Shown: piece after piece, positions 22,441 to 64,000 of the stretch | How positions within the stretch are numbered: position 1 is the first letter of the stretch | Layout of the letters: every line of letters begins with the position of its first letter | From: Cudoniella acicularis | Lineage: Eukaryota > Ascomycota > Leotiomycetes > Helotiales > Helotiaceae | Assembly (NCBI GenBank): GCA_013054445.1 | Contig: JAAMPI010000074.1 | Location: 1 to 64,000 of the forward strand | Reading direction: 5' to 3' | Length of the DNA: 64,000 bases | Made by a program: the position numbers and the translations under genes | Notes under the pieces: model-generated | Seen by the model: only the letters and a program-made list of their open reading frames with translations | Database searches by the model: none | What the model was told of the DNA's origin: nothing

Positions 22441-22549
22441 CCTATAGATTTTATTATACAAGCTATAATCGCAATATAGAGAGATGTGGTTAATAAAACT
22501 GAGATTAATTAACGGGATATAAACAATTGAAAATAGCTTCGTTTTAGGT

Positions 22550-33721: not shown

Positions 33722-33991
33722 ATATAGATGGGGTTGCTTCCGGAGTTGTAAAATCGTCGAAAGTCACAAAGACGTCTCGTTAGTGTATATATGTATAGAT
33801 TGCTCGCGCAAGCTGGTTTACCGGAGGAGTCGAACAGAGCCAAACTTATAATTCGCCTTGGAACCTGAAGGCTTTTGTCCGTTTCTGTTTTGTGTGACGC
33901 ACTCAAATCATGTCCGGGATGGTTGTGTGTGGCTTTCGCCGGAGCTATGTGCTAGTTTCAATGCTTCGCACCGTGGAGAGCTCGCACCGAG

Positions 33992-36259: not shown

Positions 36260-36854
36260 TCATTCCGAGCAAGTTCTGGTAAGCTGCGCGTATTTTTGAA
36301 GAGACTTGGATGATTTTTGCTTTGGTGTTGATGTTTTCGATGGAAAAAGGCCGCGTCGTAGCGTTCGAGATGAAGCTGGCGAAGCCCGGGCCCCCGCTTG
36401 ATGCCTGATGACTAAGGCCAGAATAATTGTGCCGCGAAGACACGGGGTCTAGGTACTCTATACTCTACGATATCTTTTCTACTGGCGCAGAAGGCCCTTT
36501 TCAATATATAGGACATAAAATAACGAACAAATTAAAACTGGATTAAAGAAATAAAAGCACAGAACAATTAAAAAATATATTTTTATAAATATCATCTAAC
36601 CGAATGAAGTGTTTGATGTTGAGATGAAGAAATTAGAGTGCTAAAAATAATATCAATTAAAGGTATATATTCCTATAATTTATTCTTTTATTCTTAGTGG
36701 CATCCCTAGGGAGCAGAGATTTTTGGACACATTGCTTACCTGATTATCCTCTAGCAACGAGGACCCTCAAAACTCTTCGGAGTCACTTCCTCCTTCTCCT
36801 CTGTCCTTCAGCCGAAGATCCTGGGACTTTCCCGCTCCTGGGAGCCATAAGTTC
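36260..36854. other. Intergenic with AT-rich patch
   Basis: Contains the presumed promoter of the minus-strand Zn2Cys6 gene and an AT-rich patch at about 36500-36690. No gene recognised. Confidence 0.45.
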
Positions 36855-42044: not shown

Positions 42045-43585
42045 GTGGTGGGTGGTGGCAAACTTGGAATTCGATGAATAATTAGATAGTGTTCCTTCTG
42101 ATAATACCTCACGAAAGAGAAAATTAATCAGTCTTTAGTCTACTATCGATGAATTCGTGTCATGTAGTCTACCCCACCCCTCCTCTCTCCATCTCACACA
42201 GTGATGAAGAGCAAATTACCTAGATGCCGCAAGTTTGAAAAGTGATGTCATGAAAAAAAAACACGTCAAAAGAATTCAACGACTCCTATTACTACCCTAA
42301 TCAATTTAACTAGAAAACTAGAAGATCCATTTTAAAAAAAGAAGAATTTCTCTTCCTCATTCCACCCCTTTGAAGTCATCATCTAACTTCCAAAGTATTT
42401 TCCAGTAAAAGTTTCACGTGACCAACGGCAGTTTTGCAATACACTTACAAAAGTCTCTGCTACCATGAAGCTAGTAAATATCAATAACAAAAGAGATTAC
42501 CTCAATCCAACCTATCGTGTAATTTCCCCTATCTAATATTCGACATCTTTATTTTTGGTGGTTATTTAATAAATTTTAAGTGCTTCCTTGTTTTATAATC
42601 TTGTACTGTACATGTTTTCCCACACCACTATTTGCCTCATTCCGTAACTGCTATAGATCTCTTTGCAAGACTCCCAAAATAATAGCCTCGTTCCTTACTA
42701 GCTGGTCTTTGTCATTCAATTTGTTAATTTTTTTATTGTCAACAAATAAACAAGCAAACGCTTAAACAGAGAGGGAGCGGGCGGGAAGCGGGTTGATGGC
42801 TCAGGAGTAGAGCGCAAACGCGAAACTAAAACTAAGGTATTCCTTTACGATAATTAAATATCTATCTGTCAAGACTTGAATCCTAAGCCCAAAGTTTAAA
42901 CCGTTGTCAATCCATAATTAAAATTTTAAAACTGTAAATGACTTTTTAAGGCCAAGATATCTCGGCTAACTCGTAAAGTCAGGCCCGACTCCCTCCCGGC
43001 AACCAGCTCCAAAATAGGAAGTCGAAAATCCCAAGAGAGACTATCAGGGCAGGTGAAGGATTCCGGAGACTTTCTAAAGACCGGGTTTGCCGAGGCTGTG
43101 AACCATGATGAGTTTCCTAACAATGGTGATGGTGCAGTATCGTGGGGTAGTCACAAGTTACAGTGAGGTACATAAGTAGTAGGTGCCGGCATGGCCGATA
43201 AGAGGCGGAAGGAGCGAGGAGACACAAGTGACAAGTACGGTTCGGCACTTAGAGATACAGCTCTGGAGATACCTTGGGACACAATGTGCGACCGACCAAT
43301 GGTTGCCGGTCGAGATCCAGATAGGTTGATGATTTTGGAAGGAGCTGAGGGGGGGGTCTCGGCTTTAATTGAACATTTGAGATTGTAGAAGTTGGTAGGT
43401 ATGGTGGTTAGTGGGGAAGGGATGGGCTTTGTGCCTGCTGTTTTGTGTACGATAGCTGAAGTACTTAAAAGCTGCTCTCCATGAAAGAGATCTCGAAATT
43501 TATCTGTGAATGCAATATTTCGTAGCAAACTTGCCGCAAAAGACGGCTAGATCTGTGTCGAAACGAGAGAAAAAACCGAAAAACA
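42045..43585. other. Intergenic, no gene recognised
   Basis: 1.54 kb between the E2 gene and the secreted-protein gene. Overlapping open frames on both strands near 43150-43530 are judged chance. No repeats of note. Confidence 0.4.
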
Positions 43586-44761
43586 ATGTCTTTCCTTCTC
43601 GAAACCCTGCTGGTATCCGCCCTCATCCCAACCATCACAGGATATGGAGTCTTCTTCGATCCAGGAGCAATAATCACCAAGGCATGTCCCCAAAATCGAT
43701 TCTCCACTAGTTTCAAATGCTCACTTAAAAATCTAGCTCGAAGTGACAATGATTATCCCTCAAGTTCCAGCTGCAGGGGGGCTTCATTATATCTGGCCTG
43801 GCTTGCAGCCATCGAGCGACAATTTTGTTTTTCAGGATGTTGGTGGTGATGCGCTTGGTTCTGGTGCTTGGACGTTTGCCGAGTGGACGGTTGATAGCCA
43901 GTGAGTTTTGTTGTGATGCTAAGTGGAGGGGATAGAAAGACGCTAATTTTGGATGTGAAAGGGATAATTATAATAAGACTGATGATGTGGCTGGTAAGTT
44001 GTGACTCGGAAAGATTGAGAGAAGCAAGCTCATGACGAATAGTCTATCCTGGAGACTCGATTGATATTCTGTTCAGTCTGGATGTGAATAGTGGAGAGTG
44101 GTTGGATCAATGTAAGCAATTCGGGGAGAGTAATCTTTCCATTTTCGGGAGGGCTGAGACCCCTTTTTGCCGGAATGTGTATTGTGTCAAGTCAAATAGA
44201 TTTCGGGTAGAGCGGTAAATTTTTGAGATTTTCACATGAAGCTAACTCCTTGCCGCGTACCAGGGACAACTACGCCCGGGTCTGACGGTACGGCGGCCGG
44301 TGAGCAGTTCACAGCTGCGAGTTTCATGGCCCCCGAGAGCCAGCTCGGTGAGTAAACAAATCAAAACTCTTCTCCGCCTTAACAGGGCTAATCAAAAACC
44401 ACAGCTGCATTTGGACCTTTGACTCAGGTAAGCCGACAAACACGAAAATACAAACCGATTTCATTCCGCTTGCTAACTCACTTCAGGCTCTCTTCATAAT
44501 TGAGCTTCAGGAAGGTGCCACTTGGAACTTCGGTCCATTGACATTCTCAGACATTACCATTCAAGCCCAAACAACTGGTACAGATTGGTGTTCGAGGTGA
44601 TATGCCATTATCTGAAGCAAGGCTGTATTGCGCTGACAAAAACATGCAGCCCAACTCAGGAGGACCAGTTTACGTTCTCGATGTTAACGCCTGTCAGCAC
44701 AGTGGATGGCAATACCGCCACGTGCACAATATCTAGCCTCGTTTTCATCGCACCATCTTGA
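43586..44761 (+). CDS. Small secreted protein, eight exons, probable GC-AG intron
   Basis: Exons: 43586-43681, 43737-43900, 43962-43993, 44043-44111, 44264-44347, 44405-44427, 44487-44596 and 44650-44761. The total of 690 bp gives 229 residues, with every junction in phase. Introns 2-7 are GT-AG (for example GTGAGT...GCTAAC...CAG). Intron 1 (43682-43736) begins GCATGT and ends CTAG; it is the junction that yields FDPGAIITKLEVTMIIPQVP and then AAGGLHYIWPGLQPSSDNF. The signal peptide is MSFLLETLLVSALIPTITG. Later pieces are GSGAWTFAEWTVDSQ, VAVYPGDSIDILFSLDVNSG, AFGPLTQALFIIELQEGATW, and a Cys pair (DWC and TATC). It resembles uncharacterised fungal secreted beta-sandwich-like proteins. No catalytic motif recognised, so role unknown; a cell-wall or extracellular role is inferred only from secretion. 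Confidence 0.8.
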
Positions 44762-47700
44762 TTGGCGAGTAGCGGGAGACGGAAGCCATCTATAGCCTAA
44801 CCGGATTTCGAAGATGATGGTCATATGGATGACGTGCTATTTCAAAATGAAACTTTGCTGAATATAGATCATGTAATTTTTGGCTCATAAAGGCACTTCT
44901 ACTAGGGAGTGGAGAATGGCTTTTAATCAAGTCAGACAACAGAATTCATAATCTCGTGCCTAATCATTGGAAGCAACCTGCTAGAAAAAAAAAAGCACTG
45001 ATTCTCCGGGAAAAGTAATGGAACTCCCAGCCATCAGCCTAGACTGCTCTCTTACTAAGAGAACAGTGAGCATGAAGTACGGACAGAGAGGAACGCACTA
45101 GCCTTGCTTTATACACGCGGAAATTGGGAACCTTCTGACGAAGTCAAGGATCAGAAGTCTTCTCTTTGAACTTTGAGAGTGCCATAAACAGTCTCATAAC
45201 TTCTCGAACAATGTCAACGAACTCGAACTTTCTCAGTGAGTCAGTTTTTGACAGCCGTGAATTTCAAATTGGGCGGGCCCGGATCACTTGATCTTTCCCG
45301 GGAGGGGTTTATCCCATACCGAGAATCGAAGGAGGAGTCATCGTACTCGGCATCGGAGATGTGAAGAATTCCAGGTCGGGAACAGCGGCTTCGAACCTTT
45401 GCCAAGAGGGAACTAATGGTTCCAGTGTCTGTGAAATTCATGCGAACGAGGCAGTGACACGAACTCAGATGCACAAGAAAGGAGGCCAAATTGTCAATAA
45501 TGTTGTGCACCCCAGGAAATCCTCGGTGAGATGGGGCGAACGGCATCTTGTATGCCAGGTGTGTTGTATGTGCATCCAAGAAACCAAGGCGCGAGATGGT
45601 CAGACAGGATTGGAGAGGGGGAGTCTCGAGGATGGTTGGAAGCAAGGTCTGGCTTCTCTTTGCTTTTGACTTTCTTGGGAAAAAGCTTCCCACGATCATA
45701 CCATGCTTGAGTAACGAGCAAAGGCGGGGAGACGCCAAAAGCAAAAGGGGCGTTGCACAATCTCATTTCTGCTGTGCACGGCGAAGGTTGGGATCGATCC
45801 GAGTTGGCGTAGGTTGAGGTAATTGAGGTTGTTGCTTGTGCTCGTGCTTGTGCTTGTGCTTGTGCTTGCAACAGGCTGTGTTCTGAAAAGTGCGCGAAGG
45901 CTGTGCCGTACAGCGCAAATGTGAGGACAAGCCACCGGCTCACCGCCTTCCCAAAAATCTCCAAGAGCTGGCTTCGAGCCTCGTCCTGCAACAGCTCTCC
46001 TTTGCACCACCTGAACATCAACCACCACACATGGCGGGGTCATCCAAAGGATCCAATTCGTTTGAAGCCGGCACTTCATCGGCCACGAGCAAATTGTACG
46101 GCAAACAGCGCCAAAAGGTGTGGGAAAATGCTGGCAACCAACATTGAGAAGGCCGTGGAAACTGCCGTTTGTAAGCTCATCCCGTGTGACGGACTGACGA
46201 ATTTACAGAAGTGCAGCTATCACCACTCTGGCCGAGGGCCACCAACCTGTCCCCCCCTTTGAGATGCATCCACAGCCCTCATGCGATCCGACGAACCGCA
46301 CTTTGGTGATACGAAGACATTCGACCAGCTCAATTGAATTCAGGCAACAGGCGGACGTACAATGGCAGGCCATAGACGCGGGGATCGAGGGACCTCAATT
46401 GGACAATGACCTACCAGTGACATGACGCGATGAACATTGCTGATGGAGTCCTGATGCACGTCGCTGTTGTCTCCTCGGCCTCTCTCCAATGGATTTCCAA
46501 GCCGGTCACACTCTCTAACTGCCCGCCTCGAAAAAGAAACGCCCTCGAAACTCTGCGTTCAGGTCAACCGTTCGATTGCATCAAGCTCGAGGCTGGGGGG
46601 TGGAAAGCATCATCAGCATGAGCCGCAGATGGATGAAAATCAACAAAGATCGTCAGGTTGTGCCTCGAATCAACAGGTCATCTGCTTCGGGATCGGAAAA
46701 GTTGGAAACATGCGGATCCCTCAACCGGCGGGTTTCAGGAGAAGAGCAAACTCAAAACATATGAGGCTATGTCCATGCTTTTGCCCATGATCCAAGAGAT
46801 GGCAGCGGTGGGGCGGGCCGCTGGGGTGTTCGCTGGAACACGGCTGCCAGTCCACGAATCATAGTTATCTATCCACTCTATGCGGCATTTTGTTTGACTT
46901 CGTTCCACGACTCCATCTAAGAGTCCTGCATCTCTGGCTGACAACACTGCAGCAGTGGGCGGTCGACGACGCAGCCCTCCACGCCGGCCATCCTGTCAAA
47001 GCTCATAGACGCAACTCTCGCGATCGCTGCTGCTCGATATTCCGTGGGTTTTGCCCTGAGCTCCTACTCGGCGACATTGAGTTGGCGGGGAGTCATGCAG
47101 TAAATCCTCCGGGCCAGCACCGCCAGCGTGAAGCTCGCCGTCTGCCCGCCCATGATTCGTGATTCGGCCTGCACATGCGCAACCGCATCACACTGTCGTT
47201 ATCGTTGCGGCGCGGCTTCCAATGAAATCCCCCTTGGACCCTTGGCCGGCCATCCTGCAGTGGGCCCGCTGTTCCTCTCTCGCTGATAAGCCGGTTAAAC
47301 TTAGCGAAAATGAGACAACGCATCAATGTCTCAGGGCCCTCAGCGACTCCATCCATCATAAGTGACCGAAATCCCCCCACACACCGACTTTTCAATCCAA
47401 TTCCTTTCCATATCATCTCAGACCTCCATGCATCTGCCCTCACAGCTCTACAAACTCTCTTACCCTCAACAGCTATTGTTTGCAATTACCCAGCCTAGGA
47501 TCTCACTCATAAACTCCGGCACTTTCTATTTGGCAGCAACCGCTGGCTCAACTAGAACAACAACTACATCAACAAAACAGCCAACCCAAGGAAGCGTTTC
47601 CAAATTTCTCCCCTGGATATTTGTATTCCAATGATTTGTGTCCAAACTCAGACCTGTGTGACCCATCAGCCGGACATCATGACAGGATTCGAACCAAAAC

Positions 47701-50874: not shown

Positions 50875-51787
50875 GTGGACGACAATTTCGTGCATTGTCA
50901 AATGAGCTTGTAAGTCGAGGAATCCCTAGCAAAGGTGTTGTTGTTGCTGTTTACTAACCAATGTGATTTTTGCACTAGATGACCAGACTATATCAATCCA
51001 TGACTACTTCGATCCTGGGACTTCGAACCAAAGGAATACACAGTACTGCGTTCCCAGTACGCATACCCGTATACAGGAAATCGACAGTCAAGTCATGTTA
51101 CCAGTCATGCAAACATAGAGCCAGGATATGTTCATAGGATATCCATTGGACATGCCGGACATGGAATCATTCCAAGGAAAGCCGTGGATCATGCCGTGAA
51201 GACTGTGCCGGGTATTTGAAGCTGGACTCAACGGAGCAGGTCATTCCGCTCTGCTATGAAGGAGGACGTGGAAGAAAGACAGAAAGACAGAAAGATTATC
51301 AAAATCGAGTTTGGAGAGGTTGCTTGCTTATTGCATTGCGATTTCGTTGGTGCGATATTCTATAGATTATTTTGCCTTTGATGCTTTGCTCTGTGCTAGG
51401 AAGGTGCGATGAAGTGACGGGATAAATAGTGAAGAGGTGGATCGTAATGCGTAAATTACCCTCCATAGGATATATAGAATGTGAATTTTGCTTTGTTGAA
51501 TATGCGGTCTAGCCGTGTATCTGCGAGACTGCGAGATTGTGACACTTCAACCCGCCATCTCCCTCGCTCCTTTTGTCCTTCTGCACCGCTGACATCTCCT
51601 GATCTGCTCGTCGCTATACCAGTATAAATACCAGCCCGTTCTCCTGCGTCCCCAGACCGTCTGCGATCTGAAATTGATTGTGAATCTTGTTGCGATTGTT
51701 ATCTCTTAATCTATGCCTTAGCAGCTCATTAACTGGGCCCCCCTTTTTCGTCCGGTGATTTGTAAAATGTGTGAATAACGTCTATCC
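50875..51787. other. 3' flank of the C2H2 gene and LTR-promoter-like segment
   Basis: Contains the 3' UTR region, then at about 51538-51730 a segment starting TGTGACAC with a TATA box (TATAAATACC near 51622). It resembles a retroelement promoter but has no matching end or duplication. No gene recognised. Confidence 0.35.
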
Positions 51788-51937
51788 CTACGTAGCGNAA
51801 AANCNNNNGTGCCGNAAAAAATTAATAGGTACTTTGACTTNAAGNATCTTAAAATCTGTNCACACCTNAATATCTCNTATATTTTCTNANAAGTTATATT
51901 CCGTNGCNACTCCTNGACANCCTAAACCCCTCNNACT
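51788..51937. other. Ambiguous bases in low-quality sequence
   Basis: About 20 scattered single or short-run N calls within 150 bp. This is not a scaffold gap but an unresolved consensus, as when divergent repeat copies are merged. Frames across it are unreliable. Confidence 0.95.
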
Positions 51938-53110
51938 AGAAAATCACGTTCGCATCGTCGCCCTCACACCTGATTTGCAAAGAGTGTCTTTCCATAGCGT
52001 AACAGACTTCCTCTACCACAACTCTATCCTCGAGCTCTTACTATCCCTAATACCTATCAAGGGGTCTTATCCGAGCTCTAAAGCCTCGCTACGATGCAGG
52101 GAATCGTCATCAGCCTTGTGGCTACTGTGGCGTGCAGATTCACACATGATCGCCATGCGGTTCGGTACCTCGGATCAAAGCGAGTGACAATTTTGGTTAG
52201 TGCGAAACAACCCCGCACGCCCTATAATATTTACGCTGTAATTCCAATTATGTAATCATTGGCTGACGTGAGGCTAAACTGCTCGCGTGACCTGTCAGCG
52301 AGCGAACACCAGATCAGCGCCAGCGTCTCATACTACTTGTACGGTACTACGGGTACACTACCAATTCGAAATCGGCTTCAATTCCGAACACTCAATGATT
52401 TTATTTCTGACCCGCATTTTGTGCGGCACGTGACGTGAGAACTTTTGCCTGAGGATGTATAACGTCGCCTGCGCGTCTACAAACGCCAACATGTATGCAC
52501 ACAGCCACCCTAGTTTCGCCTTCTGCACAGCCACCTGATCCGAGCGCCAGGCCAAACAGCAAGGCCGGCTGTGAGGCTGTCACGGCGGCAATCTTCTCTG
52601 TACCCACACGTCCACATGTCCACGTCCATATCCCTCAATAATTAGGCAATATTCCCCAAACTTCAATCGATCAAGCTCCTTTCTACGTCCTCTCAACATC
52701 TCCTGTTTGTCGTTTACGTGCTAGGAATATAGTCGCTTGGCGCCGTTTTCTCCTACCACTACCTCGCGAACGCTTTTCTTTCCCTCGATCGCCGAGCTGT
52801 GAGCTGGCAGCCGATCCCGAACTGTCACCCGACTCTCGCCCGTCAATGCTCCCCTACACTGCTGCCTTCTACCACCGCTCTTCCCGCCATCATGCAGCGG
52901 CAAGTCGGTAGGAACAGCATATAGTACCTTCGCCATAACCAATATCGACGACTGTTGAACTATGGCGTCAGATTACCAATTTCCCCCTAATACACACGTC
53001 ACACACTCGCTACCTAATATACGCCACCTGACACACGTCAGCTTTAGGCTCCAGCTTTACGCTACTATGTATATAATAGACGTATATCCCCCTCATTCAA
53101 GAGGGCAGGC
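51938..53110. other. Intergenic, repeat-derived appearance
   Basis: No supported gene. Short CACGTGAC and CGTGAC motifs recur at 52260-52440. The segment sits between ambiguous sequence and a frameshifted gene and probably belongs to collapsed repeat DNA. Confidence 0.35.
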
Positions 53111-53916
53111 TTGCAGACAAATAAACTCATAAACCTCGCACTTCAACAACGACCTCTTCGTCCTCGTAACTTTCTTCGCCGAGGCAACCACCAGCGCCAC
53201 CCTCTCCCCCTCAAGATCACCATCGGCCAATACCTCGGCTTCAAGATAATCGTAATTATTAATATGATCGGGTTCGCCGTCTCACTCGCCCTTCCCTCTG
53301 AACCGATTGGCTTCCTTAGTCTCTCACCTATATTGCTTGGAATATGGAAACTACTCGAGGTTGTCTTCCCGACCGAGGAGGAAGAGGAAGCGGAGAAATT
53401 GAGGATTGCGGTATGAAGAGTATATTCAAAGTCTCGGTGATCACCGTGATAAATGGGGGAGATAATATCGGGATATATATACCTCTCTTTTCGCAAGCGA
53501 AGGGCGTAGAGATAGCTATTTATGTGGTTGTCTACTACATCCTCGGCGTGTGGTGCTTCGCGGCATGGTTGTTGATGGGGCAGAAGCATGTTCTACGGCT
53601 AGTGGAGAAGTATATAAATTGGGTGATTCCGTTCCTCTACATGGGCCTCGGGATCGACATCACTATCAAGTCGAACTGCTACCCGTGGTCTATCGAACAT
53701 ATCGATAACCAGTTCTTGGCAAACCCGGGGAAGACTATCATGGCTGTTGTTTCTGCGGCGGTGCTTTTGGCGGCTATTGGAGCGATGCTCTGGTTGAAGT
53801 TGCGGAAGAGGACACAACAGCTGGCCCGGCAGCTCCATCAGCGCAACAAGGTCCGCCGCCGAGATATCCAGCTTTGTCGTGTACAGTACTCTTCGCATGT
53901 GCTCATTGTTGCTTAA
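53111..53916 (+). pseudogene. Cadmium-resistance transporter (Cad family), frameshifted
   Basis: Cad-family membrane proteins export or sequester Cd2+; the founding members are bacterial CadD. Three same-strand frames make up one protein. The first (about 53140-53205) reads FNNDLFVLVTFFAEATTSAT. After a one-base deficit in CTCTCCCCCTC it continues PLKITIGQYLGFKIIVIINM, then GFAVSLALPSEPIGFLSLSP and an EEEEE loop. At about 53412 (GCGGTATGAAG) another one-base deficit moves to MKSIFKVSVITVINGGDNIG, YIPLFSQAKGVEIAIYVVVY, FLYMGLGIDITIKSNCYPWS, IEHIDNQF. About five to six TM helices are evident. No start codon was found for the first segment. Ambiguous bases lie 1.2 kb away and one break is in a C run, so sequencing error is possible. 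The protein is otherwise well conserved. Confidence 0.8.
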
Positions 53917-54037
53917 GTGCGATATCATGGCATCGTTCGTGGAGGAGGCTTATGACCAGTCGATGGGTTTTCGTGGGAATCGAAAGTCGTGCTCTGTTGA
54001 TGGTGGTTCATGATGATGATGGTCGTGTTTTGAGCCC

Positions 54038-54349
54038 TTGTCCACCCTACACCCGAATACGTGGGGCGTCAATGGTCCCCCACGCTCTCCCAATGGTGCG
54101 TTCGGCAATGGTTCTGATCAGGAAACGGCCACAGCGGCTGCAAACCCCCACAACACCGTGGCACATTCCAAGGTACGGTCAGGGACATTGCAGGCGAAGA
54201 GAAAACGTGTCCCATGGACACTAGAAGAGAATGAGACGATACTCAAGATGAAGGAGGAGGGTTGCCCATGGGAAGAGATCCATGCTGCCCTCCCGCGCCG
54301 GACACCAGGGGCGATCCAGGTGCAGTACTCTACGAAACTCAAAAAGTAG
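54038..54349 (+). pseudogene. SANT/Myb-like domain fragment
   Basis: An open frame without an ATG ends at TAG 54349. Its C-terminal half is a SANT/Myb-like helix-turn-helix: KRKRVPWTLEENETILKMKE, then EGCPWEEIHAALPRRTPGAI and QVQYSTKLKK. The spaced Trp residues and final basic KLKK fit small fungal Myb-like proteins. Upstream the frame closes at TGA 54017, and no exon supplying a start was found, so I treat it as a fragment. It may be the C-terminal part of the family whose N-terminal part appears at 56486-57301. Confidence 0.6.
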
Positions 54350-54762
54350 AAATATAACCGCCTAGACCTCTCCCACACCTCTCTGACACCTCTTCCCTCC
54401 CTTTTCTTACGTCAAACTGCTTCCTTTGCCGTCGCCGTCTCATGCAGGCGGTATCAGCTGAGATTCCGCCAACCTGTGACCGTTTCCCTGAGATCCAAAC
54501 CACTCCTAGTGACTACTTCCTAAATCGACAGGCGCCTTCCTAGTCAGCCCTGCGAAAACACGAATTTGCCCCAAGTTTGCCATCCCTGCTTAGGATTCGT
54601 GCTCACACCACCCACCAGCTCCATGCACGTTGGCATTCTGCCAATGATGGGAGAGAAAGTTGACAGCGACCATGCCCTCTCCTAGCAACAGAGACATCAA
54701 ATTCAAACCCAGGTACTTGACGAGTCTCGGTCCTCCTAGTGCTGTGTAGACCACGCCTTTGG
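54350..54762. other. Intergenic, no feature recognised
   Basis: 413 bp between the SANT fragment and the convergent membrane-protein gene. Nothing supported. Confidence 0.45.
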
Positions 54763-56116
54763 TTAAGAGACATGTGGTAAATATTTCGACCAATCAATGT
54801 CTTCGTACAGCTCTGCTGGGGCTAGCCGCAAACACAAAAACAGCTGCACAATGATCACCACCCTCCCAATTGCATATAGCCCGATGAAGCATACCAATAA
54901 CGAATCAAAAATCTGATACACTCTCGTTTTTCCGGCTTCAAGCCGAACAAAAATAAACAGAATCAAACCGGCAATTGCACATGACACTGTTGTGCTAACG
55001 CTACAAACTCGCCAAATCAACTTTTCTACCGGCGTTGGGAAATCCCAATTCCACGCTGTTATATGTATAGAAGAGAATATGGTTCCTAAAGATGCACTCC
55101 ACCATAATGGCAAAGGAAGCTGAAGGAATTTCCGGGAATAGACTCCAATTGATGCAAACTTCAAATTGGAGATACGACGATCTTCGTTTTGTAATTTCCA
55201 TCCTAATGGGCCGTAATGTGTCTTCGTACTTTCTTCGAGGTAGTCCAGGATTCTCTGTGTATTGTTCGGTTCACCCTGGGCCCGAGCCGCCCTATTGATC
55301 TGTACCTCCAGGCCCTGATTCACATCAATGACCGTGGGATTATTAATACAGTAAGGTTTATCTAACCAAAACCAGTACATTGTTATGGCGCAAAGCACGA
55401 AAGCTGAGGTTGCGAGCTCTAATTGGGAGATTGGAAGACTTTGGACCCGGCGAACAATGGTTTGAACTATGTAGCTAGTCAGTCAAGTTCTAATTTCTCC
55501 ATAGATACGCAGCTAAAACCTCACCCACTAGCCAACCGGCCTGAACCACAGCAAGTCCTTTGACGAGTATATCGGCCTTACTTCTGTCTTTTATTTCCTC
55601 TAGAGGTACACGACCGGGTAGTAGGGCCGGCAAAATCTCATTGGGCCCCTCCTCTCGCAGATTCTGACCTGCTTCTCCAGAAAAATACCGCTGTCTAGGG
55701 GGTCGCCAAGCAGGGTTTCTTAACCTGGAAACCTGCCACGCATAGAGTGGGATTGGCTCGTCGAGTGGGCCGAGTCGAATGGCTATTCCCCCCATGCCAG
55801 CAAAAAACCCATGAGTCATAGTCCATCCTTCTTCACGCGTCGCCATATCCTCGTATGACTCCTTGGCATTCGCCCAATCTTCAATGGCAGTGGCTACCGC
55901 TATCTCGGGGGCAATCGCAACGATGAACATCCATTTTATTTGGCGTGCTGCTGGCGACATGGATTTTAGCCGTGGGAACCTAGCTCGCCTTTCTTCAGCA
56001 CTCGGAAGGTTCGGATGGACTGCAGTATATGTGCAAAGAAGCAGCACAGTCAGACAACTCCATAATATGTCAAAGGAGCTTCTAGTGCTTGATAACCTCC
56101 AGCCAACATCAGACAT
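54763..56116 (-). CDS. Multi-TM fungal membrane protein, two exons
   Basis: Exons are complement of 56116-55525 and 55466-54763, with intron 55467-55524 (GTGAGG...CTGACTAG...TAG, 58 bp). The total of 1296 bp gives 431 residues, phases agree. The junction joins VQAGWLV to VQTIVRRVQSLPISQLELAT, a typical sequence of a large uncharacterised fungal family. TM segments are visible near the N-terminus (ILWSCLTVLLLCTYTAVH), at IKWMFIVAIAPEIAVATAIE, at SAFVLCAITMYWFWLDKP, and three to four more toward the C-terminus (WWSASLGTIFSSIHI, SCAIAGLILFIFV, DSLLVCFIGLYAIGRVVIIV). There is no enzymatic motif. It looks intact, unlike its neighbours on both sides. Confidence 0.82.
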
Positions 56117-56485
56117 GGTGCTCTGCTATTGCGATATTCCAATCTTCGATATGAAAGTTTCAAGAAACGTTCGGGTTTCGACAGAAGACTTATACGTCTT
56201 ATGGAAGAAAGTAAGGATAGGAACGAAATTGTTGGAACTCAATATTGGAGGTTGACGACTAGATTTCTAAACTTGTGCGGGGCAAGCCCTATATATACAT
56301 CCAGTATATAAACTACAGTGTATCAGCGTACACCTAGTCCCAACAGATTGCCCCTCCTTATTTCCATTTGCGCTATCATCTGTATCTATAGTACATCCCA
56401 TTTCATATATCAAAAAAGAAAAGTATTTTACTATTTCCTTAGCTTGTTTATACGCATATTGATCTGACTCCGCAGCACCGATCCA
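56117..56485. other. Intergenic upstream of the membrane-protein gene
   Basis: 369 bp, probably the promoter of the minus-strand gene. Nothing else recognised. Confidence 0.4.
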
Positions 56486-57301
56486 GTGGAAGTAGAGAAC
56501 TTGAGGAACATGTCGCTAACGGAACATCAAGTAGCCTCTTCTCCCCCATCCTTGAGCCAAGCACAGTCTCAGGTCCATCTCAAGCATCCAGCGACTCCGA
56601 TCAACGAGGAGTACCGCCATACTTCACGAGCCTCTCGAAGTTCCAGTCCCTCTGCTCCATCCGACCTGGCACTGGGCGGCGAGCCTGAGTCGGGGAAACG
56701 GGGAGAGAAGCGGGGGCGTCAGGACACGCATACAGAGATCAGCAGCGAAACCCACCTTTCCGTAAACACCGATGACACCTGTGATACGGGCGACGAGAAC
56801 CCACGACCTGCAAAGCGACGAAAGCCACGCTCAGCGCCTGCCGTGACATTGACGACGCACAGCCCCAGGCTGATCACGGATGTCCCTTGACCTTTGTCGA
56901 TAATAGCCACCAATATGCCTCGCGCAGACGCGGCACCAGTCGCTGAGTATCAGGAATGGCCCTTCCAAGGTTTCCGCAAACGCACCAAGATCGGGGATGA
57001 TATAACGTACAATCTCCAAACATTCTCCGTTCCCCCCGCGCGGCAGGATTTACTAACGAAGGTCCCCACTCACAGCAGATGGCTCGACGATATCACGAAA
57101 TCGATAACGAAAACCTTTGAGACCTATGGGATGCGACGAGCGCGATCCGAGGTTCGGAATCTCTCCGGCAGCACCTCCACTTCCCCACTAATGCCGCCCA
57201 CGATAGGGGGCCGTGCTGTGTTAAAAGCTCCTCGAAAAGCCAATACCGGAACACTGCCAATTCCACCCACACAATGGCTCCTCGTTCCAACACAGTCTTA
57301 G
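56486..57301 (+). pseudogene. Relic of a Ser/Pro-rich protein, possible SANT-family N-terminus
   Basis: One frame is open from upstream of MSLTEHQVASSPPS (ATG near 56510) to TGA 56888-56890. It then continues in the same frame to TAG 57301: EYQEWPFQGFRKRTKIGDDI, then TYNLQTFSVPPARQDLL. The first part is Ser/Pro-rich with a basic patch (RPAKRRKPRSAP). The single in-frame stop and the drift after NLQTF suggest decay. I recall that fungal proteins with a WPFQGF-KRT motif often end in a Myb-like domain like that at 54038-54349; if so these are two partial copies of one family. That link is unverified. Confidence 0.5.
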
Positions 57302-57555
57302 CCCAGTAAGCAAGTGCCGATTTTGCCTTTGAATTTCTCATCATCTTCTTTAATTGGGTTTGCCACACCATTCGGCAAAGTGAACCTCTAGAGATATTAG
57401 CCGGTCTGGCCTGACACGTGGCTGCTATGGAAACTTCTAGAAGAACGCCACACTGCGCCACAACTTCACGTGACATTATAAAAATTCTTAATTAAATACG
57501 ACAAGCGTGGCTGTGAATACAGATATTAGGTAAGGGCGATAAAATCCTTCCTCGC

Positions 57556-57831
57556 TTATTGATGCGGCATTTTGTGTACCTCCCACTTTTGTCCGGACAA
57601 ATCCGGCAGGCAGGTTTCCTTGTACACTGTGTCTTCAAAGTTCAGAGTTATATTTGAACTTAATAGAAGCTCTATACCACGGCCCCGAGTTCCAGGGACA
57701 GGTTGATAGTCATAATAGAGCAAGGGGTAATAGCTATAGCAGCTTTTGACGCTCTCAATAAGACAATCGACAGAATAGCCAAACTGCAGTATTTTTTTCT
57801 GACTGCAAGTCGAGCCCTTGTAGAGAAGTAG
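57556..57831 (-). pseudogene. Cys-containing ORF, probable 3' exon without start
   Basis: A 91-codon frame with no early ATG, closed by TAA 57556-57558. Directly before it is TTTACTATTATTCTTTAG, a good 3' splice site, so it may be a terminal exon. Text: LYKGSTCSQKKILQFGYSV, then DCLIESVKSCYSYYPLLYYD, YQPVPGTRGRGIELLL, FEDTVYKETCLPDLSGQKW. Four Cys and no family recognised. Base composition is closer to normal coding DNA than its surroundings. It lies 160 bp downstream, on the same strand, of the secreted-protein relic at 57991-58386. I found no good donor linking them, so a separate gene with a lost first exon is equally possible. Confidence 0.5.
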
Positions 57832-57990
57832 CTAAAGAATAATAGTAAACAGATTATAGCTTTATATATTTATGTGGCGGAGATTTAAGACCCCTAAACT
57901 AGAAAGTTTTTTCGGTATACCGGTTTTTTCGGCACGCATGGATGGACGTTACTCTACAATTATCTCATTGCTCCAGATGCCTGTATTTTG

Positions 57991-58386
57991 TTAGGTCTTG
58001 AAGTTCGGCGCGGAAGCAACTGGACATCCAACTCCTTTCTTGCTATTAAAACTTTGTAAAACGATTATACAGGCAGTAGCTCGCTGTTTATTTGTAGCTA
58101 TAGACTGGTCACTAGCGTTATTGCTAAACGTGATTGGCTCTCCCTCGACATTGCCTGCTCTAAGAGCATCATTTAGCTCATTAATAAACTGGTTACGATC
58201 AGGCGGACAGGTGTAGGGAATTGGGACAAACTGCCCATTGAATCCAGTACAACTGCCTACTTGGAGAACATTAGGGTCAGTTCCTCTAATGACTCCGAAT
58301 TCTGGGACGAGTGTCCTATCAACCTCTCCTTAGTAAGGATAGGCATTTATAGAGATCAGAAGAGCGAAGACTATAACTAAATTCAT
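57991..58386 (-). pseudogene. Small secreted protein gene with one internal TAA
   Basis: From ATG 58386 the frame encodes a signal peptide, MNLVIVFALLISINAYPY, then TAA at 58332-58330. After that it runs without a break to TAA 57993-57991, 132 codons in all. The mature part reads GEVDRTLVPEFGVIRGTDPN, GSCTGFNGQFVPIPYTCPPD, RNQFINELNDALRAGNVEG, ITFSNNASDQSIATNKQRA, ACIIVLQSFNSKKGVGCPVA. Four Cys (two near residues 45 and 59, two near 104 and 118). It resembles a family of fungal secreted proteins I have seen without a function. A single CAA-to-TAA change would explain the stop and matches RIP. No intron removes it. The conserved remainder means recent loss or a stop that is read through or polymorphic. 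Confidence 0.72.
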
Positions 58387-59022
58387 AGTTGTAATATAAG
58401 TTGTTCTTTTATATATACGAGTAGCTTGAATTAGAATAATAGGAAGGAGATAAAGAAGTAGATATAAATTACTCTATAGCTTCTTAGATACTTTATACTT
58501 TTTAATAGAATTATTAGCTTTTAGGAGCCTTTTTAAGCCAGAACTAGGCTATGTTACGAGAAAAATCTGCCTTAAGAGATTAAAGGATTTATTTTTAGAG
58601 GGGTCCTATTTAAGCTCCCTAGAGAATTTATTCTGGCCCCCTCTATTTTTAGAATGTTATAATAAGCGTAATATACCTTATAGATTTTTATATCTTTATT
58701 TTTAAACCTATTCATTTAGTATAAAATAGCCCTTCCTTAGCTAAGTAATATAGATTGCGCTAAATAGAGAGCTAGGTACTAGGAAGCACTTGTAATCTAT
58801 ATTAGCAAATTCAATATTAAAGTCTAAGGTAAGTAGATAGAGACAAGTTAACTTAGGGTAATACTATATATTAAACTTAGAAAACTAGTACTTATAAAGT
58901 AATATTTGAAAAGCATTTCTTAAATTATACTAAAATATAAAAATAGAAACATAATAATTTGTTTAATAGAAGAGTCTATTAAGCAGACTCTATTAAACTA
59001 CTAGTTAGTTAAAAATATAAAG

Positions 59023-59600
59023 TTAATTAATAATAGGAACTAGTAGATGTTCGTTTAAAACCAAATCAGTATTTAGCTCTTCTATTAACGGTATGATCTT
59101 GTTTACAATTTCAGTATACTTATATATATCACTTTTGAAGCCACCTGCTATCACTACGCTCTTCTAGAAGTCCTGCTAGAGTATCTGATAAGTAGTCTTA
59201 AGCTGATTTAGTTCTTCCTCGGACTGTTGTCGAAGCCTAGATTCTTTAGTAGCTTCGTCCCTCTATTGCTTTAGCTCCTGTTCAAGCTTTACATTTTCTC
59301 CTCGCAATTCGTCTATTTTCGCGCTAAAGCTCGCTTGTATAGGCTACGCAAGGTGTTAACTAGGTTTAGAAACTCGAGCTGTTTATATACCTCTACTGAT
59401 ATAAGAACATCTTGGACATAGCCTTCTAAACCTGTCCTAGTAGTGTAATTTATAGGTATAGCCTCGAACGCAACACCAATTCCTTTACAAAGTTCCTTAT
59501 ATGCCCCGATTAAATGATCACTAATGTTTTTCAAGAAGAGGTGCTTTTTCTCTGGCAAGACTTTCTATATATAAGGATTATCGGCTCTAGTTATAAGACG
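59023..59600 (-). pseudogene. RIP-degraded coiled-coil protein relic
   Basis: The upstream part, open from about 59558, reads PEKKHLFLKNISDHLIGAYK and LCKGIGVAFEAIPINYTTRT. A neighbouring frame then takes over near 59345 and runs to TAA 59023-59025: AKIDELRGENVKLEQELKQ, RDEATKESRLRQQSEEELNQ, then VVIAGGFKSDIYKYTEIVNK. Four TAG codons sit at positions where Gln or Trp is expected in the heptad pattern. The protein was clearly a coiled coil; family unknown. Confidence 0.55.
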
Positions 59601-60661
59601 AACCTATGATAGTTCAATTTTGATTCTAATTCTACTATCTAAGGCTATATTAGTAAGAGCTAAAAGATATATACGATAACTTATAAATATGTTAAGATAA
59701 CTCTTCTCTATAGCTGTTTCTCTAGCGGCTACGGTCTAGATTACTTGATCTAATTAGAGTCATTTGATATATAATACTAAAGACTAAAAGCCAGTAGAAA
59801 AAGAAGGTGCTATAATAATAGTAGAGATAGGTATTAATATATAGTTTAAATTACTTAAAAAACGTAAGTAGAGCTGTTTTAGGTCCCTAAACAAATATAC
59901 TATTTTTAGAAGGTCTCTTTCTGGCTCTATTACTTTTCGGCATCACCGATTTCGTACTAGCAGAAAAAAATAGAAGCTGGCTTATATAATAAAGTCTATA
60001 GCTACTAAGCCTAGCCGAACAATTCCTATGCTCCTAATACTCCGAGCAGTACTATATCCTCTTTAGCGAGTATTTAACTTTTGTCGGCCATTTTGTTTCT
60101 ACTCTAAGAAGCCGGTGTCGTAACGAACTTTTAGCGAGTAATGTCCTTGTTATCACTATAATATCTTGCGTAACTTTAAGAAAATCTTATTATAGTCAGT
60201 AACTTATCATCATGCCTTTATATTAATATTAGTAGATGTTTATATATTCGGCATCAATAAGTCCTCCTAATCAACCCGCGCTATCTAATTCGTCTTTAGT
60301 TTAAAGAGGGCGTATTAATAGTCTAAAGGGAGCTAGAAGAAGATCTACTAAGAATAGATATCCTAGACCAGGTCTAAAAAAGGCGCTATATTATACGCTT
60401 TCAAACTAATTTATACTATAATACCTATCTTAAGAGTAAGTATTAAGTAGAGCTATTAAAACATAGTTATAGGTTTTTTTTTAAAATTCTTTCTTTACCT
60501 CTTACTAATAAAATAGAAATAAAAATAATTAACTAAAATAGATTATATAAATAAATATATATAAAAAGACTATAACTCTTTAGAGTTTCTCTAGTAAAAC
60601 TAATATATAAAAGAGACTCTTAGTAGATATTATAGAGGCATAAGAGAGACTAAACTTATCT

Positions 60662-60797
60662 CTTCTACTAGTAAGACATTGCCTAACTAGCGGCTATATA
60701 AATATAAGGAGGGTAATTAAAGGAATCTTATATTTATTTATTAAATTAGTGATAAATCAATACGGCTGCTAGTTAGGCAATGTCTTACTAGTGGAAG
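60662..60797. repeat. 136-bp foldback MITE-like element
   Basis: A 33-bp arm at 60662-60694 (core CTAGTAAGACATTGCCTAAC) pairs with the inverse complement of 60765-60797 at about 31 of 33 positions, around a 70-bp AT-rich centre. The arms are GC-richer than the surroundings and conserved, which suggests a late insertion or retained function in transposition. A TA lies left of the CTAG core; the right flank has TG. Confidence 0.75.
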
Positions 60798-61492
60798 GGA
60801 TAGTATTTATAAATATTTTGATAAAAACAAGAGAAGATTTAAAATAGACAAGCTAGAATTCATAGAAGTACTATCTAAAAGAGAAACGTCTTCTACAGTT
60901 ATAATTTGCCCTACTCCTATTTCAAGCCTAATCGCTATACCTTCTTCAATCCTAGGTAGTATAGAGACTTTATTTAGATAAAGTATATATCTACTAAGGA
61001 ACAGCAACCATATTATCTCTCTGTTATATATATCCTACTATATCATTACCCTGGTCGATTTATATATAATCGAGTTCCTTAGAGGTCTGAATAGCCTTAT
61101 AGCAACAGTAACAAAGCGATGTAAGGCAAGAGGTGTAACATGATTCGAGTTCTAGAATATCTATAATACTATATTAGTCTATGTTTAGATAATAGAAATA
61201 GAAGGTAGGTAATAAAAGAAGTTATATACTATTCTTCTGATTTATCTCTCGTCTATCGCGTAGTTGAAGGACCTATCCGAGGCCAAGGCAGTATGTGAGT
61301 ATACACCAGCCGTAACACCACCTACTTATCGTTTCTGGGTTAGGTCTAGTATTGTTATGAATCCGCTAGTGATTTTGACCGACGAGAATACAGGTACAGA
61401 ATATAGATTTTAAGCCTAGATAGTGTTGTTATTAGTCTTTTTGTTATATAAGAATATTTAGAAGATCTTATAGAGGCTATAGGGCGCGCAGT

Positions 61493-61653
61493 TCAAGAGA
61501 GAGTTGTGGTATGATCCAGACATTTTGATAGTATTGACTTTGTTAAGGGAACGTAAGAAGGAAGTATGATTGGACAAGGAAAGAGCGAGTTATGAGAGTT
61601 TGTTAGTCTGAGTATTTAGGAGAAGAAATAATCGAACTAAGGGAGGCATCTAA
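61493..61653 (+). pseudogene. RIP-degraded coding relic, unrecognised
   Basis: The frame reads GAQFKRELWYDPDILIVLTL, LRERKKEV, stop TGA, LDKERASYESLLV, stop TGA, VFRRRNNRTKGGI, then TAA. Both TGA codons fit former TGG (Trp). TAG codons in the same frame just upstream also fit Gln or Trp. No family recognised. Confidence 0.45.
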
Positions 61654-62216
61654 CTTTTATCCTCTTTTATAAGAGGACAGGGGCCTTGCTTAGTGTAGAA
61701 GATAGACCGATATCCGAGATAGCCAGCATACCTAGATTTGGCTAGGTACTCTGTATACCGGTTATAGATTTAGGATCAGTCCTCACAACGAAATTAATAT
61801 AAGGGATAGAATGTCTTTTCCTATAACTCTAAATAAGGCATTACTCGGTTCGGGTGAGTATATAAACCAGGTATAGAAACAGGATGTAGAAACGAATGGG
61901 TCGGCTCGATTCGATACCAGCTCGCCGTCATTAGATCGCTATACTTAGAAATAAGGAGTTCGTAGAGGATTCGTATATACTCGACTCCTTATAGAGCCGA
62001 AATATAGTTGCTAAAAAAGGTGCCTCTCTAGAGCCTGTTCTGGCTCTAGAAAGGGAGCCTATTCTGACTACTATAGAATTGATTATTATCTTATAGTACT
62101 TAAGTATTAAACCCGTTATATCTACTCTTATTATTATAACTACCTTATAATAAACTCTTAAATCAATCTAAAAAAAATTACGACTAGAAAAGACAGACAT
62201 TTTATCTCGCTTTAAA

Positions 62217-62474
62217 ATACATTTTCAGAATATTATCAACGCTGTTGTCATCCTCGCTACTATCGCTATAGCGCGGCCATAGACCCTAGGTCAAACCCGT
62301 CGATCCCCTAGTCTGGAAATTCGACAAGATGCCGGCCTATAACCTATAAAGTGCGACGAGTTTTTTACCTAGGAATGTACTCCGGGTAGTAAAGAGTTAT
62401 ACTGTCTAATAAGCAGTCTCTGTTTCCCAGACACCGACAAGCTATCAGGCCAAACTACTTTTAGGTGCTTCTAA
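62217..62474 (+). pseudogene. RIP-killed small Cys-rich secreted protein
   Basis: The frame starts at ATA 62217, where ATG is expected: HFQNIINAVVILATIAIARP is a clean signal peptide. Then TAG (62280), TLGQTRRSPSLEIRQDAGL, TAA (62340), PIKCDEFFT, TAG, ECTPGSKELYCLISSLCFPD, TDKLSGQTTFRCF, TAA 62472-62474. The first-codon ATG-to-ATA change and the three internal stops at positions suited to CAG, CAA or TGG are all G-to-A or C-to-T changes. Five Cys in the mature part. The frame could continue past the last TAA to about 62561 (TRAFSV, then SMYIEALKCRRNKRSL) if that stop is also secondary. It fits an effector-like secreted protein; family not known. Confidence 0.62.
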
Positions 62475-62861
62475 ACAAGAGCCTTTAGCGTCTAAGGATT
62501 TATGAGTATGTATATAGAGGCGCTGAAATGTAGGAGGAATAAGAGAAGCTTAGGTCGAATCTAATAGCTATAAATATATTATATAGAAAGTTAGAATTAA
62601 TTATATAGATAGTTTTGTTCTTGTTCTTGTTTCTAATTTAGCTGCCTTACTAGATAGGGATTGTCTAATTAGACATAAAATAAATCGATTATAAAATACC
62701 CTATCTTATTCCTAGTAGTCTACCTAAATCTAAATCTCCCCTTTATAGGAAATTAATATATTAATAACAGTATATCACGTGAATTTCTTAGAACAGGAAA
62801 GATTTACGCGATCTGCCAGGTATAATAAACGTTTCAGTCCTCTCTATAGCGTAGAGTATAA

Positions 62862-63078
62862 AGACAAGGTGTAGAGACAAGGTGTAGAGACAAGGAGTAG
62901 AGACAAGGTGTAGAGACTAGATATAGAGACTGGATATAGAAACAGGATATAGAAACAGGATATAGAAACAGGATACAGAAACAGGATACAGAAACAGGAT
63001 GTAGAAATAGGGTGCACAGGGTATAGAGACAGGATATAGAGACAGGGTATAGAAACAGGGTATAGAAACAAAGTGTAG
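62862..63078. repeat. 13-bp minisatellite, about 16-17 copies
   Basis: Tandem units of 13 bp, early units AGACAAGGTGTAG and later units AAACAGGATATAG with gradual drift and one irregular unit near 63013. Because 13 is not a multiple of 3, overlapping open frames arise on the minus strand (SISCFYILFLYPV repeated); these are products of the repeat, not genes. A related pair of units occurs near 61865-61890. Confidence 0.88.
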
Positions 63079-63272
63079 CGACCAGGGGCGTATAATCATT
63101 TCATCGCCCTTATAGGTCATAAAACTCAAACATCAGAGATCTAAACTATTATTACTAACTTATATAACTTTAGATTAAAAAAAGCTTAATTCTTTTTTAA
63201 TTTTTATAAATCGTTTTACTAAACAATAAATCTCTCGATATATAAGCTTCCCTTAGAAATCTTAATTAGTAT

Positions 63273-63566
63273 CTAATATTTTTTTAGCGATCTAATATGT
63301 TTCTTTTCGCCCCCTAAATCTTCCGCCGTAACAAATTTACCGTAGACAAAGTTAAAGATATCGCCTCTTTTCGCCCTAAACCGGTCGTATCCCCTAAAAA
63401 ACGATTTAGGGTTATTATCGCGTATTTTGTTTTCTATAATAATAATATTATAATTCGAAGTCACGAATTTAATAAAAATAAGGCTTAAGACACTCGTACT
63501 AGGTGTTCTAAGAGTACCTTTAGTAGTACATGTACTGATAGCTTTAATGGCTATAGCAGATTGATA
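63273..63566 (-). pseudogene. AT-rich ORF relic, unrecognised
   Basis: A 97-codon open frame without a clear start, ending at TAG 63275-63273. Text includes AIAIKAISTCTTKGTLRTP, SNYNIIIIENKIRDNNPKSF, FRGYDRFRAKRGDIFNFVYG and KFVTAEDLGGEKKHIRSLKK. The protein-like composition in AT-rich DNA suggests a decayed transposon or repeat ORF. No family assigned. Confidence 0.4.
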
Positions 63567-63767
63567 TTAGAGAGATAGAGTCATACGGAGAATTTAGGGC
63601 AGACGACGGCGAAAATTGCTAAAGGGATCAATTTTCAAAATATAATAGATAGGCTATATAAGAAATTGGTTTTAGTAATAAGAGTTTAACGATATATATC
63701 TGTTAGTATTTTTAAACCGCAAATTAAGAAACCTATTATACCGAGACGAATTTATTGTTTAGTAGTT

Positions 63768-63887
63768 TTAAATCTCTCCCTCGCGAGTATATAAGTTTAT
63801 GATTAGTATATAATTATTCTTTAGCTATTTCTCTATAAAGATTCGGTTTATACTATTAATTATCTTATCTATGTCGTCGAAAGCCAT
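63768..63887 (-). pseudogene. Short ORF relic with one internal TAG
   Basis: From ATG 63887: MAFDDIDKIINSINRIFIEK, TAG, LKNNYILIINLYTREGEI, TAA 63770-63768. The stop fits a former CAG or TGG. Probably part of a repeat-derived ORF; family unknown. Confidence 0.35.
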
Positions 63888-64000
63888 TTTAACAATTCTC
63901 TCCTACTTTATTATAAATATCGGCCTGTCTCTAGATTTCGGGGTTATAATATAAAGCTTTTATTAAGAAAGAATAGTGTCTTTAAGCTTTATAGACACGT

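What the first reader, a model, noticed from the sequence alone, without database searches (positions are those of the whole stretch)
57400..64000. RIP-like graveyard that contains secreted-protein genes
Reading through stops in this island recovers several coding regions whose lesions are nearly all C-to-T or G-to-A at Gln, Trp or Met codons. At least two encode signal peptides followed by Cys-containing small proteins. Effector genes near repeats can be mutated by RIP leakage or be RIPed as duplicates; here more than one appears to have died in 6.6 kb, which would make this a former effector-rich compartment.
Basis: partly seen in the sequence, partly recalled or inferred. Interest (0 to 1): 0.75.

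Follow-up and report, generated by a model that had tools for sequence, protein, structure and literature searches.

The report
Mutated graveyard of secreted-protein gene copies
A stretch of a fungal genome holds broken copies of small secreted-protein genes that were duplicated around the genome and then mutated by what looks like the fungus's own anti-repeat system; this is a clear new case of a known process rather than a proven lost pathogenicity region.

Summary
RIP is real, with corrected borders: 17 of 18 500-bp windows at 58001-67000 of the contig are RIP-positive, against 1 of 115 at 1-57500.

Relic 1 (57949-58386, minus) is a broken small secreted protein, 89% identical to an intact 145-aa public protein. 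The assembly holds 10 further close copies (three partial), all with stops: 49 of 50 stops fall on Gln or Trp, and 313 of 400 differences are reachable by C-to-T/G-to-A alone, against 43 by the reverse.

Relic 2 (62217-62474, plus) belongs to a second family. Nine broken copies carry 48 stops, 46 on Gln of an intact copy that survives on C1453. The window's own copy is divergent, with 1 of 3 stops on Gln.

Best reading: dispersed duplicates mutated by RIP, closer to the amplified Zymoseptoria DNA methyltransferase than to leakage into single-copy effectors. 'Former effector-rich compartment' is unsupported: copies lie on many contigs, no effector role was tested, and the nearest named relative is Halenospora varia. 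A TIR element ends exactly at relic 1's stop codon.

The parts
58251..64000 (.). Part inside the window of a RIP-affected AT-rich island (GC 0.26-0.40) that continues to about 67.0 kb of contig C1549
   Evidence: RIP indices in 500-bp windows; counts and shuffle control
57949..58386 (-). Relic 1: small secreted protein (145 aa in the closest intact homologue) with start codon and signal-peptide region present, broken by 2 in-frame stops; stop-free piece 57994-58329
59026..59564 (-). Relic 3: unidentified coding relic in pieces; its 83-aa piece has 14 further matches in the genome
58203..61845 (.). Stretch duplicated on contig C1433 (three pieces, 83-94% identical; 298 transitions to 40 transversions)
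60657..60802 (.). Short inverted repeat, MITE-like (50-nt arms, 84% complementary, 46 nt between)
62217..62474 (+). Relic 2: small Cys-containing protein with signal-peptide-like N-terminus; start codon lost and 3 stops before the natural terminator; an intact 83-aa relative lies on C1453
62857..63071 (.). 13-bp minisatellite, about 17 units; similar arrays lie in the fetched stretches of C821, C976, C1102 and C1316
63726..63998 (-). RIPed fragment related to 57629-57929, in inverted orientation (63% over 303 nt)
51776..57951 (.). Candidate 6.2-kb TIR element, not RIPed, carrying a Cad-type transporter gene and a Myb-like ORF; its right terminus (TIR 57907-57951) abuts the TA of relic 1's stop codon

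Best explanation
The island is a repeat graveyard made by RIP. Two small secreted-protein families (relic 1 and relic 2) exist in this helotialean fungus as dispersed copies; one lineage of relic 1 is also carried in a large repeated segment found on C821 (twice, inverted), C976, C1102 and, in part, C1075. Because the copies were repeats, RIP (C-to-T mainly at CpA, with CpT second) hit them. For relic 1 the search found no intact close copy; for relic 2 one intact, unRIPed copy survives on C1453. The window copy of relic 1 sits at the island's edge and has the fewest stops of the full-length copies: signal peptide and most of the body are readable, but two stops end translation. SHOWN: RIP composition, transition bias, direction and Gln/Trp bias of lesions across the copies, copy numbers, broken state of the close copies found, intact homologues elsewhere. 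INFERRED: that duplication came before and caused the mutation, that the proteins were secreted, that the C1277 protein is RID, that the window copy of relic 2 was itself killed by RIP, and how the copies were spread (segmental duplication for the large repeat; unknown for the others).
For: RIP indices and controls. C1549 against C1433: 298 transitions to 40 transversions in 3550 aligned columns; of 252 transitions with an agreed neighbour, CpA 135, CpT 86, CpC 21, CpG 10. Relic 1, 11 close copies: 49 of 50 stops on Gln/Trp; 313 of 400 mismatches to P0001 RIP-reachable against 43 reverse-reachable. Control: the distant intact paralogue on C233 has 8 against 5 of 60, and no stops. With RIP-reachable differences set aside, copies lie close to intact public proteins: C1433 0 of 61, C1023 2 of 58, C1571 3 of 144, C821b 2, C821a 3 and C976 3 of 145, C548 4 of 85, window copy 5 of 145, C1075 7 of 135, C1440 9 of 145, C1102 9 of 133. 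Relic 2, 9 broken copies against the intact C1453 copy: 46 of 48 stops on Gln; 167 of 312 mismatches RIP-reachable against 54 reverse-reachable. Dispersed copies. Large repeat: C821 copies 94% over 9.2 kb, C976 89-91% to them over 9 kb and 86% to C1102 over 10.2 kb. Three loci with C5 DNA methyltransferase domains.
Against: One assembly of 1836 contigs: an intact copy in a gap, or one split by introns, could be missed, and search counts are lower bounds. An intact relic-2 copy does survive. The window copy of relic 2 does not show the RIP pattern against it: 1 of 3 stops on Gln, 8 against 6 of 38 differences. The intact relic-1 homologues come from other records, mostly of unnamed strain. RIP was not shown by experiment. 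Copies share ancestry: the 50 relic-1 stops fall on 10 positions, so they are not 50 independent hits. The window copy of relic 1 is now 73-87% identical to the 10 others, above 80% to four; repeats over 80% are said to be RIP targets (PMC6710886 passage). CpT is a marked second context. Against C976, C1075 and C1440 the transitions run about equally both ways or even against the window copy (31 to 41 for C976), since both sides are mutated.
Confidence: 0.77

Rival explanations
1. RIP leakage: relic 1 in the window was effectively single-copy and was mutated because it lay beside a RIPed repeat, as described for AvrLm1/AvrLm6 in Leptosphaeria maculans.
For: The gene lies at the island's edge and damage falls off across it: the body 57994-58329 has GC 0.45 and indices 1.14/1.05, the flank upstream of the gene 0.29 and 1.45/0.61 (gradient). 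The leakage effect is published for L. maculans (PMC2973834; abstract and section list seen).
Against: Ten further close copies lie in the same assembly and all have stops, so the gene was a repeat in its own right.
Confidence: 0.15
2. The genes are passengers of a transposable element (transduplication), and the TIR elements that abut them are the vehicles.
For: A TIR terminus lies 0 bp, about 88 bp and about 320 bp beyond the 3' end of the gene in C1549, C1440 and C1571. Elements of the same TIR family carry gene-like cargo: HET on C639, Cad-type transporter and a Myb-like ORF (just under Pfam's cut-off) in the window.
Against: The gene lies outside the TIRs in those three cases; the distances and the end that faces the gene differ (left end in C1549, right end in C1440 and C1571); the 8 other close copies have no TIR terminus that close in the stretches read (stretches uneven, and RIPed TIRs could be missed). 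No transposase was identified.
Confidence: 0.15
3. General AT-biased drift or deamination in a neglected region, without RIP.
For: AT-rich decay is common in gene-poor regions (general knowledge). The window copy of relic 2 shows no clear RIP direction against its intact relative.
Against: The TpA excess and CpA/TpG deficit exceed every one of 300 composition-matched shuffles; transitions outnumber transversions 298 to 40 with CpA first; 114 of 115 windows in the 57.5 kb beside it are not RIP-positive.
Confidence: 0.03

Closest known systems
Amplified DNA methyltransferase gene of Zymoseptoria tritici, all copies inactivated by RIP (as told in PMC6710886)
   Same: A host gene amplified to many copies that were mutated by RIP, with no intact close copy found (relic 1)
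   Different: There the gene is for DNA methylation and exchange among telomeres was proposed; here it is a small secreted protein, in several contexts and in a large repeated segment, and the original locus is unknown
Histone H3 transduplicated by a hAT element in Pseudocercospora fijiensis (PMC6710886)
   Same: Dispersed RIPed copies of a host gene, with one intact copy left (like relic 2 and C1453)
   Different: There copies sit inside a defined hAT element with TIRs; here no vehicle is defined
RIP leakage into AvrLm1/AvrLm6 of Leptosphaeria maculans (PMC2973834)
   Same: Small secreted-protein gene damaged beside RIPed repeats, with a gradient
   Different: Those are described as single-copy sequences near repeats; relic 1 is multi-copy
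Large RIP-affected regions (LRARs, at least 4 kb; PMC7882544)
   Same: About 9 kb of RIP-positive sequence with low GC
   Different: None essential; the composite index is mostly 0.55-1.3 inside the window and 0.9-1.8 at 64-67 kb, against 1.3 on average for Fusarium circinatum LRARs

Membership tests
Large RIP-affected region (LRAR) | RIP-affected stretch of at least 4 kb (definition read in PMC7882544) | tested here: met
   17 of 18 windows of 500 bp positive over 58001-67000, by my cut-offs
Large RIP-affected region (LRAR) | Transitions dominate between repeat copies, CpA context first | tested here: met
   298 transitions to 40 transversions; CpA 135 of 252
Large RIP-affected region (LRAR) | Genome encodes a RID-type methyltransferase | tested here: inconclusive
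   PF00145 matches at three loci; the C1277 protein looks RID-like by a recalled motif; the PDB search gave only generic cytosine methyltransferases
Amplified host gene with all copies RIP-inactivated (Z. tritici DNMT type) | Many copies in one genome | tested here: met
   Relic 1: 12 matches including the window copy; 11 close, 1 distant
Amplified host gene with all copies RIP-inactivated (Z. tritici DNMT type) | Every copy including the original inactivated | tested here: inconclusive
   Relic 1: all 11 close copies found have stops, but the assembly is fragmented and the original locus is not known. Relic 2: not met, an intact copy lies on C1453
Single-copy effector damaged by RIP leakage (AvrLm type) | Gene is single copy in the genome | tested here: not met
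   10 further close copies of relic 1
Plant-pathogen effector | Secreted, expressed in the host and acting on it | not testable with these tools
   Signal-peptide-like start by inspection only; no convincing Pfam family for 23 relic-1 family members or for the intact relic-2 relative; no expression data
Tc1/mariner-type TIR element (51776-57951) | Terminal inverted repeats shared by a family | tested here: met
   45-bp TIRs on C639 (93%); 49 TIR sites in the genome, 0 in the reversed control. In the window only the right TIR matches within 3 mismatches; the left one is degenerate and holds Ns
Tc1/mariner-type TIR element (51776-57951) | TA target duplication at a recognisable empty site | tested here: inconclusive
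   TA is at both ends, but the left flank does not match what follows the gene in other copies
Tc1/mariner-type TIR element (51776-57951) | DDE transposase encoded | tested here: not met
   Ten ORF pieces (8 of the window, 2 of C639) gave Cad, Myb-like and HET matches, no transposase

The most novel reading that the evidence does not exclude
A family of TIR elements with TA at the ends and variable host-gene cargo (HET proteins, a cadmium-resistance-type transporter, a Myb-like protein) spreads genes in this fungus, and the spread of small secreted-protein genes in their company exposed them to RIP, which wiped out one whole family in this strain and left the other a single intact copy, while intact members persist in relatives. 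The genome defence would then be a filter that removes secreted-protein families as soon as they are amplified.
Probability: 0.1. Interest if true: 0.65.

Novelty: new member of a known kind. Interest (0 to 1): 0.4.

Why it matters
It is a well-supported case in Helotiales in which RIP appears to have broken every close copy found of a conserved small secreted-protein family, with near-identical intact proteins in other public sequences, beside a second family that kept one intact copy. It separates two processes that are easily confused, leakage and duplication, and gives families where the order of duplication and mutation can be tested across isolates. It is also a warning that 'dead effectors' in AT-rich islands may be dispersed repeats.

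Tried and rejected
Rfam: no match in the window at the gathering thresholds. Pfam on ten relic pieces: nothing convincing. NCBIfam on P0001, P0027 and P0030, and the PDB profile search: nothing convincing. AlphaFold of the intact homologue P0001 with 23 sequences: mean pLDDT 52, too poor to use, so no fold search was made. The pair 57629-57929/63726-63998 as ends of one element spanning the island: rejected, because the element whose terminus is at 57951 extends leftwards, away from the island, and the second fragment lacks the outer part of the TIR. Starship vehicle: 26 DUF3435 matches in the genome, 19 with stops; one on C1075 lies about 20 kb from a relic-1 copy, too weak to use. Simple insertion of the TIR element into the gene's 3' end: the far flank does not fit. 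Literature: searches gave 0 papers; some searches were seen as search listings; PMC7882544 as passages, PMC6710886 as abstract, outline and passages, PMC2973834 as abstract and outline. I make no claim that such a case is absent from print.

For that reason the confidence went from 0.80 to 0.77, the novel-case probability from 0.12 to 0.10, the observation verdict to 'partly confirmed' and the interest from 0.42 to 0.40. The repeat once called 14 kb is now given by its aligned lengths.
Full report
WHERE IT IS. The window is bases 1-64000 of contig C1549 (73367 bases) in a 53.2-Mb, 1836-contig assembly. A pescadillo protein in the window has its best match, among 120 listed, in Halenospora varia (91%), with other Helotiales behind it, so the organism is a leotiomycete near Halenospora. 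No Rfam family reaches its gathering score in the window.

THE RIP ISLAND. In non-overlapping 500-bp windows, 17 of 18 at 58001-67000 pass TpA/ApT >=1.1 and (CpA+TpG)/(ApC+GpT) <=0.75; 1 of 115 pass at 1-57500 and 0 of 12 at 67001-73367. The one that fails in the island is the first, 58001-58500. At 58251-64000 the indices are 1.40 and 0.59; 300 mononucleotide shuffles give 1.00 +- 0.03 (maximum 1.09) and 1.00 +- 0.04 (minimum 0.89).

COPIES OF THE ISLAND. 58203-61845 has a paralogous stretch on C1433 in three pieces of 83, 94 and 89% identity. Between them are 298 transitions and 40 transversions in 3550 columns; of 252 transitions whose next base (read on the C strand) agrees, 135 are CpA, 86 CpT, 21 CpC and 10 CpG. 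CpA-first is what RIP predicts; the CpT share is notable and unexplained.

RELIC 1. On the minus strand, 57994-58329 is an uninterrupted 112-aa piece. It matches 31 public proteins, the best at 90%; 10 of the 31 are exactly 145 aa long, and the two that bear an organism name come from Cadophora and Amylocarpus. The frame before it has a start codon and a hydrophobic stretch like that of the intact proteins, then a stop. No Pfam family fits. In the same assembly the piece has 12 matches: the window copy, 10 close copies and a distant paralogue on C233 that is open and not RIPed. Three of the close copies (C548, C1433, C1023) are partial. Against P0001 the 11 close copies carry 50 stops: 45 on Gln, 4 on Trp, 1 on Glu. 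Of 400 amino-acid differences, 313 can be reached by C-to-T/G-to-A changes alone and 43 by the reverse alone; for the C233 paralogue the numbers are 8 and 5 of 60, with no stop. The stops fall on only 10 positions, so many are shared or recurrent. With RIP-reachable differences set aside, the copies on C1549, C1440, C1571, C548, C1433 and (narrowly) C1023 lie closest to P0001, those on C976 and C821 to P0008; C1075 and C1102 are ambiguous. Remaining differences run from 0 of 61 (C1433) and 2 of 145 (C821b) to 9 of 133 (C1102). So near-identical intact proteins exist in public sequences, and I found no intact close copy here.

HOW THE COPIES ARE SPREAD. Most pairs of sites share only the gene-sized unit, from about 185 bases before to 380-470 bases after the start of the 112-aa piece. 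The exceptions are the stretch shared with C1433 and a larger repeat: the two C821 copies (inverted around about 36.0 kb, 94% over 9.2 kb), C976 (89-91% to them over 9 kb), C1102 (86% to C976 over 10.2 kb) and C1075 in part. Pieces in or beside it match an FSH1 hydrolase (C976) and, in the unRIPed end of C1549 that aligns with part of it, a ferritin-like protein.

RELIC 2. 62217-62474 (plus) has a signal-peptide-like start and six Cys. Its DNA has 10 matches in the genome including itself. The frame aligns in 10 places: 9 of those 10 (75 bases on C1804 gave no alignment) and one on C1316. All 10 stop at one shared column, which is the natural end, because the copy on C1453 is an intact 83-aa reading frame with normal composition (0.76 and 1.39). 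Against it the 9 other copies carry 48 stops, 46 on Gln; 167 of 312 differences are RIP-reachable against 54 reverse-reachable. The window's own copy is the odd one: 53% identical, 1 of 3 stops on Gln, 8 against 6 of 38 differences. Its composition (1.42 and 0.75) is RIP-like, but its lesions cannot be polarised with this reference. A cruder count made earlier, 43 of 64 stops in columns where another copy has Q, W or R, included the natural terminator and what follows it. No homologue was found in the protein database and no convincing Pfam family for the C1453 protein.

RELIC 3. 59026-59564 (minus): its 83-aa piece has 15 matches including itself, 12 of them with stops, and no family.

THE LEFT BORDER. 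57428-57951 matches one end of a 3.85-kb element on C639 with 45-bp inverted ends and a HET-type gene between them. The other end of that element matches window 51776-52263 in two pieces, so 51776-57951 is a candidate element of the same family, with a Cad-type transporter gene (its only match in this genome) and a Myb-like ORF inside. The terminal pattern occurs 49 times in the genome against 0 for the reversed control. Reading that list by eye, inverted pairs 3-7 kb apart lie on C639, C835, C1194, C347 and C1783. In the eight other relic-1 copies whose 3' end was read in register, the sequence runs through GAGTA or a close variant and on; in the window the TIR begins at that TA. The far flank does not resemble what follows the gene elsewhere, so either the junction was rearranged or the two termini belong to different elements.

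MACHINERY. PF00145 matches three loci. The C1277 protein, intact if one intron is allowed, reads as RID-like by a motif that I recall; no named hit confirmed it.

COMPARISON. Amplification of a host gene followed by RIP of all copies is known from the Z. tritici DNA methyltransferase, and with the original spared from histone H3 in P. fijiensis (PMC6710886). Leakage into effector genes is known from L. maculans (PMC2973834). Relic 1 works like the first, relic 2 like the second. It is a new member of that kind, not a new kind.

VERDICT. The RIP observation and most of the lesion claim are right, the borders and the window copy of relic 2 need qualification, and the effector-compartment conclusion goes beyond the evidence.

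Noticed in passing
51776-57951; elements on C639, C835, C1194, C347, C1783 and C1440: Family of TIR elements (TA at the ends, 45-bp TIRs) with different gene-like contents in the two read (window, C639); no transposase seen. Could be a gene-carrying, non-autonomous family.
   Followed up: partly
L046:1363-1614 (C1453), minus: Intact, unRIPed 83-aa relative of relic 2 with six Cys and a signal-peptide-like start.
   Followed up: partly
51798-51934: All 20 ambiguous bases (N) of the window lie here, inside the left end of the TIR element, as if repeat copies had been merged in assembly.
   Followed up: no
C821 about 26600-45400 (L028, L029): Large palindrome: two arms of at least 9.2 kb, about 94% identical, facing each other around about 36.0 kb, each with a broken relic-1 copy.
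   Followed up: partly
22001-22500: The only RIP-positive window in the first 57.5 kb; 21.8-22.1 kb resembles repeats beside relic-1 copies on C548 and C1023.
   Followed up: no
62857-63071 and arrays on C821, C976, C1102, C1316: 13-bp minisatellite that recurs in the large RIPed repeats.
   Followed up: no
138-338: About 200 bases 82% identical to sequence just past the relic-1 fragment on C1023.
   Followed up: no
Island, C1549 58203-61845 against C1433: CpT is a strong second context of the transitions (86 of 252), more than strict CpA-preferring RIP would give.
   Followed up: no
66294-66708 of contig C1549 (L006:2294-2708): About three tandem units of some 135 bases (85-91% alike) in the RIPed part beyond the window.
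   Followed up: no
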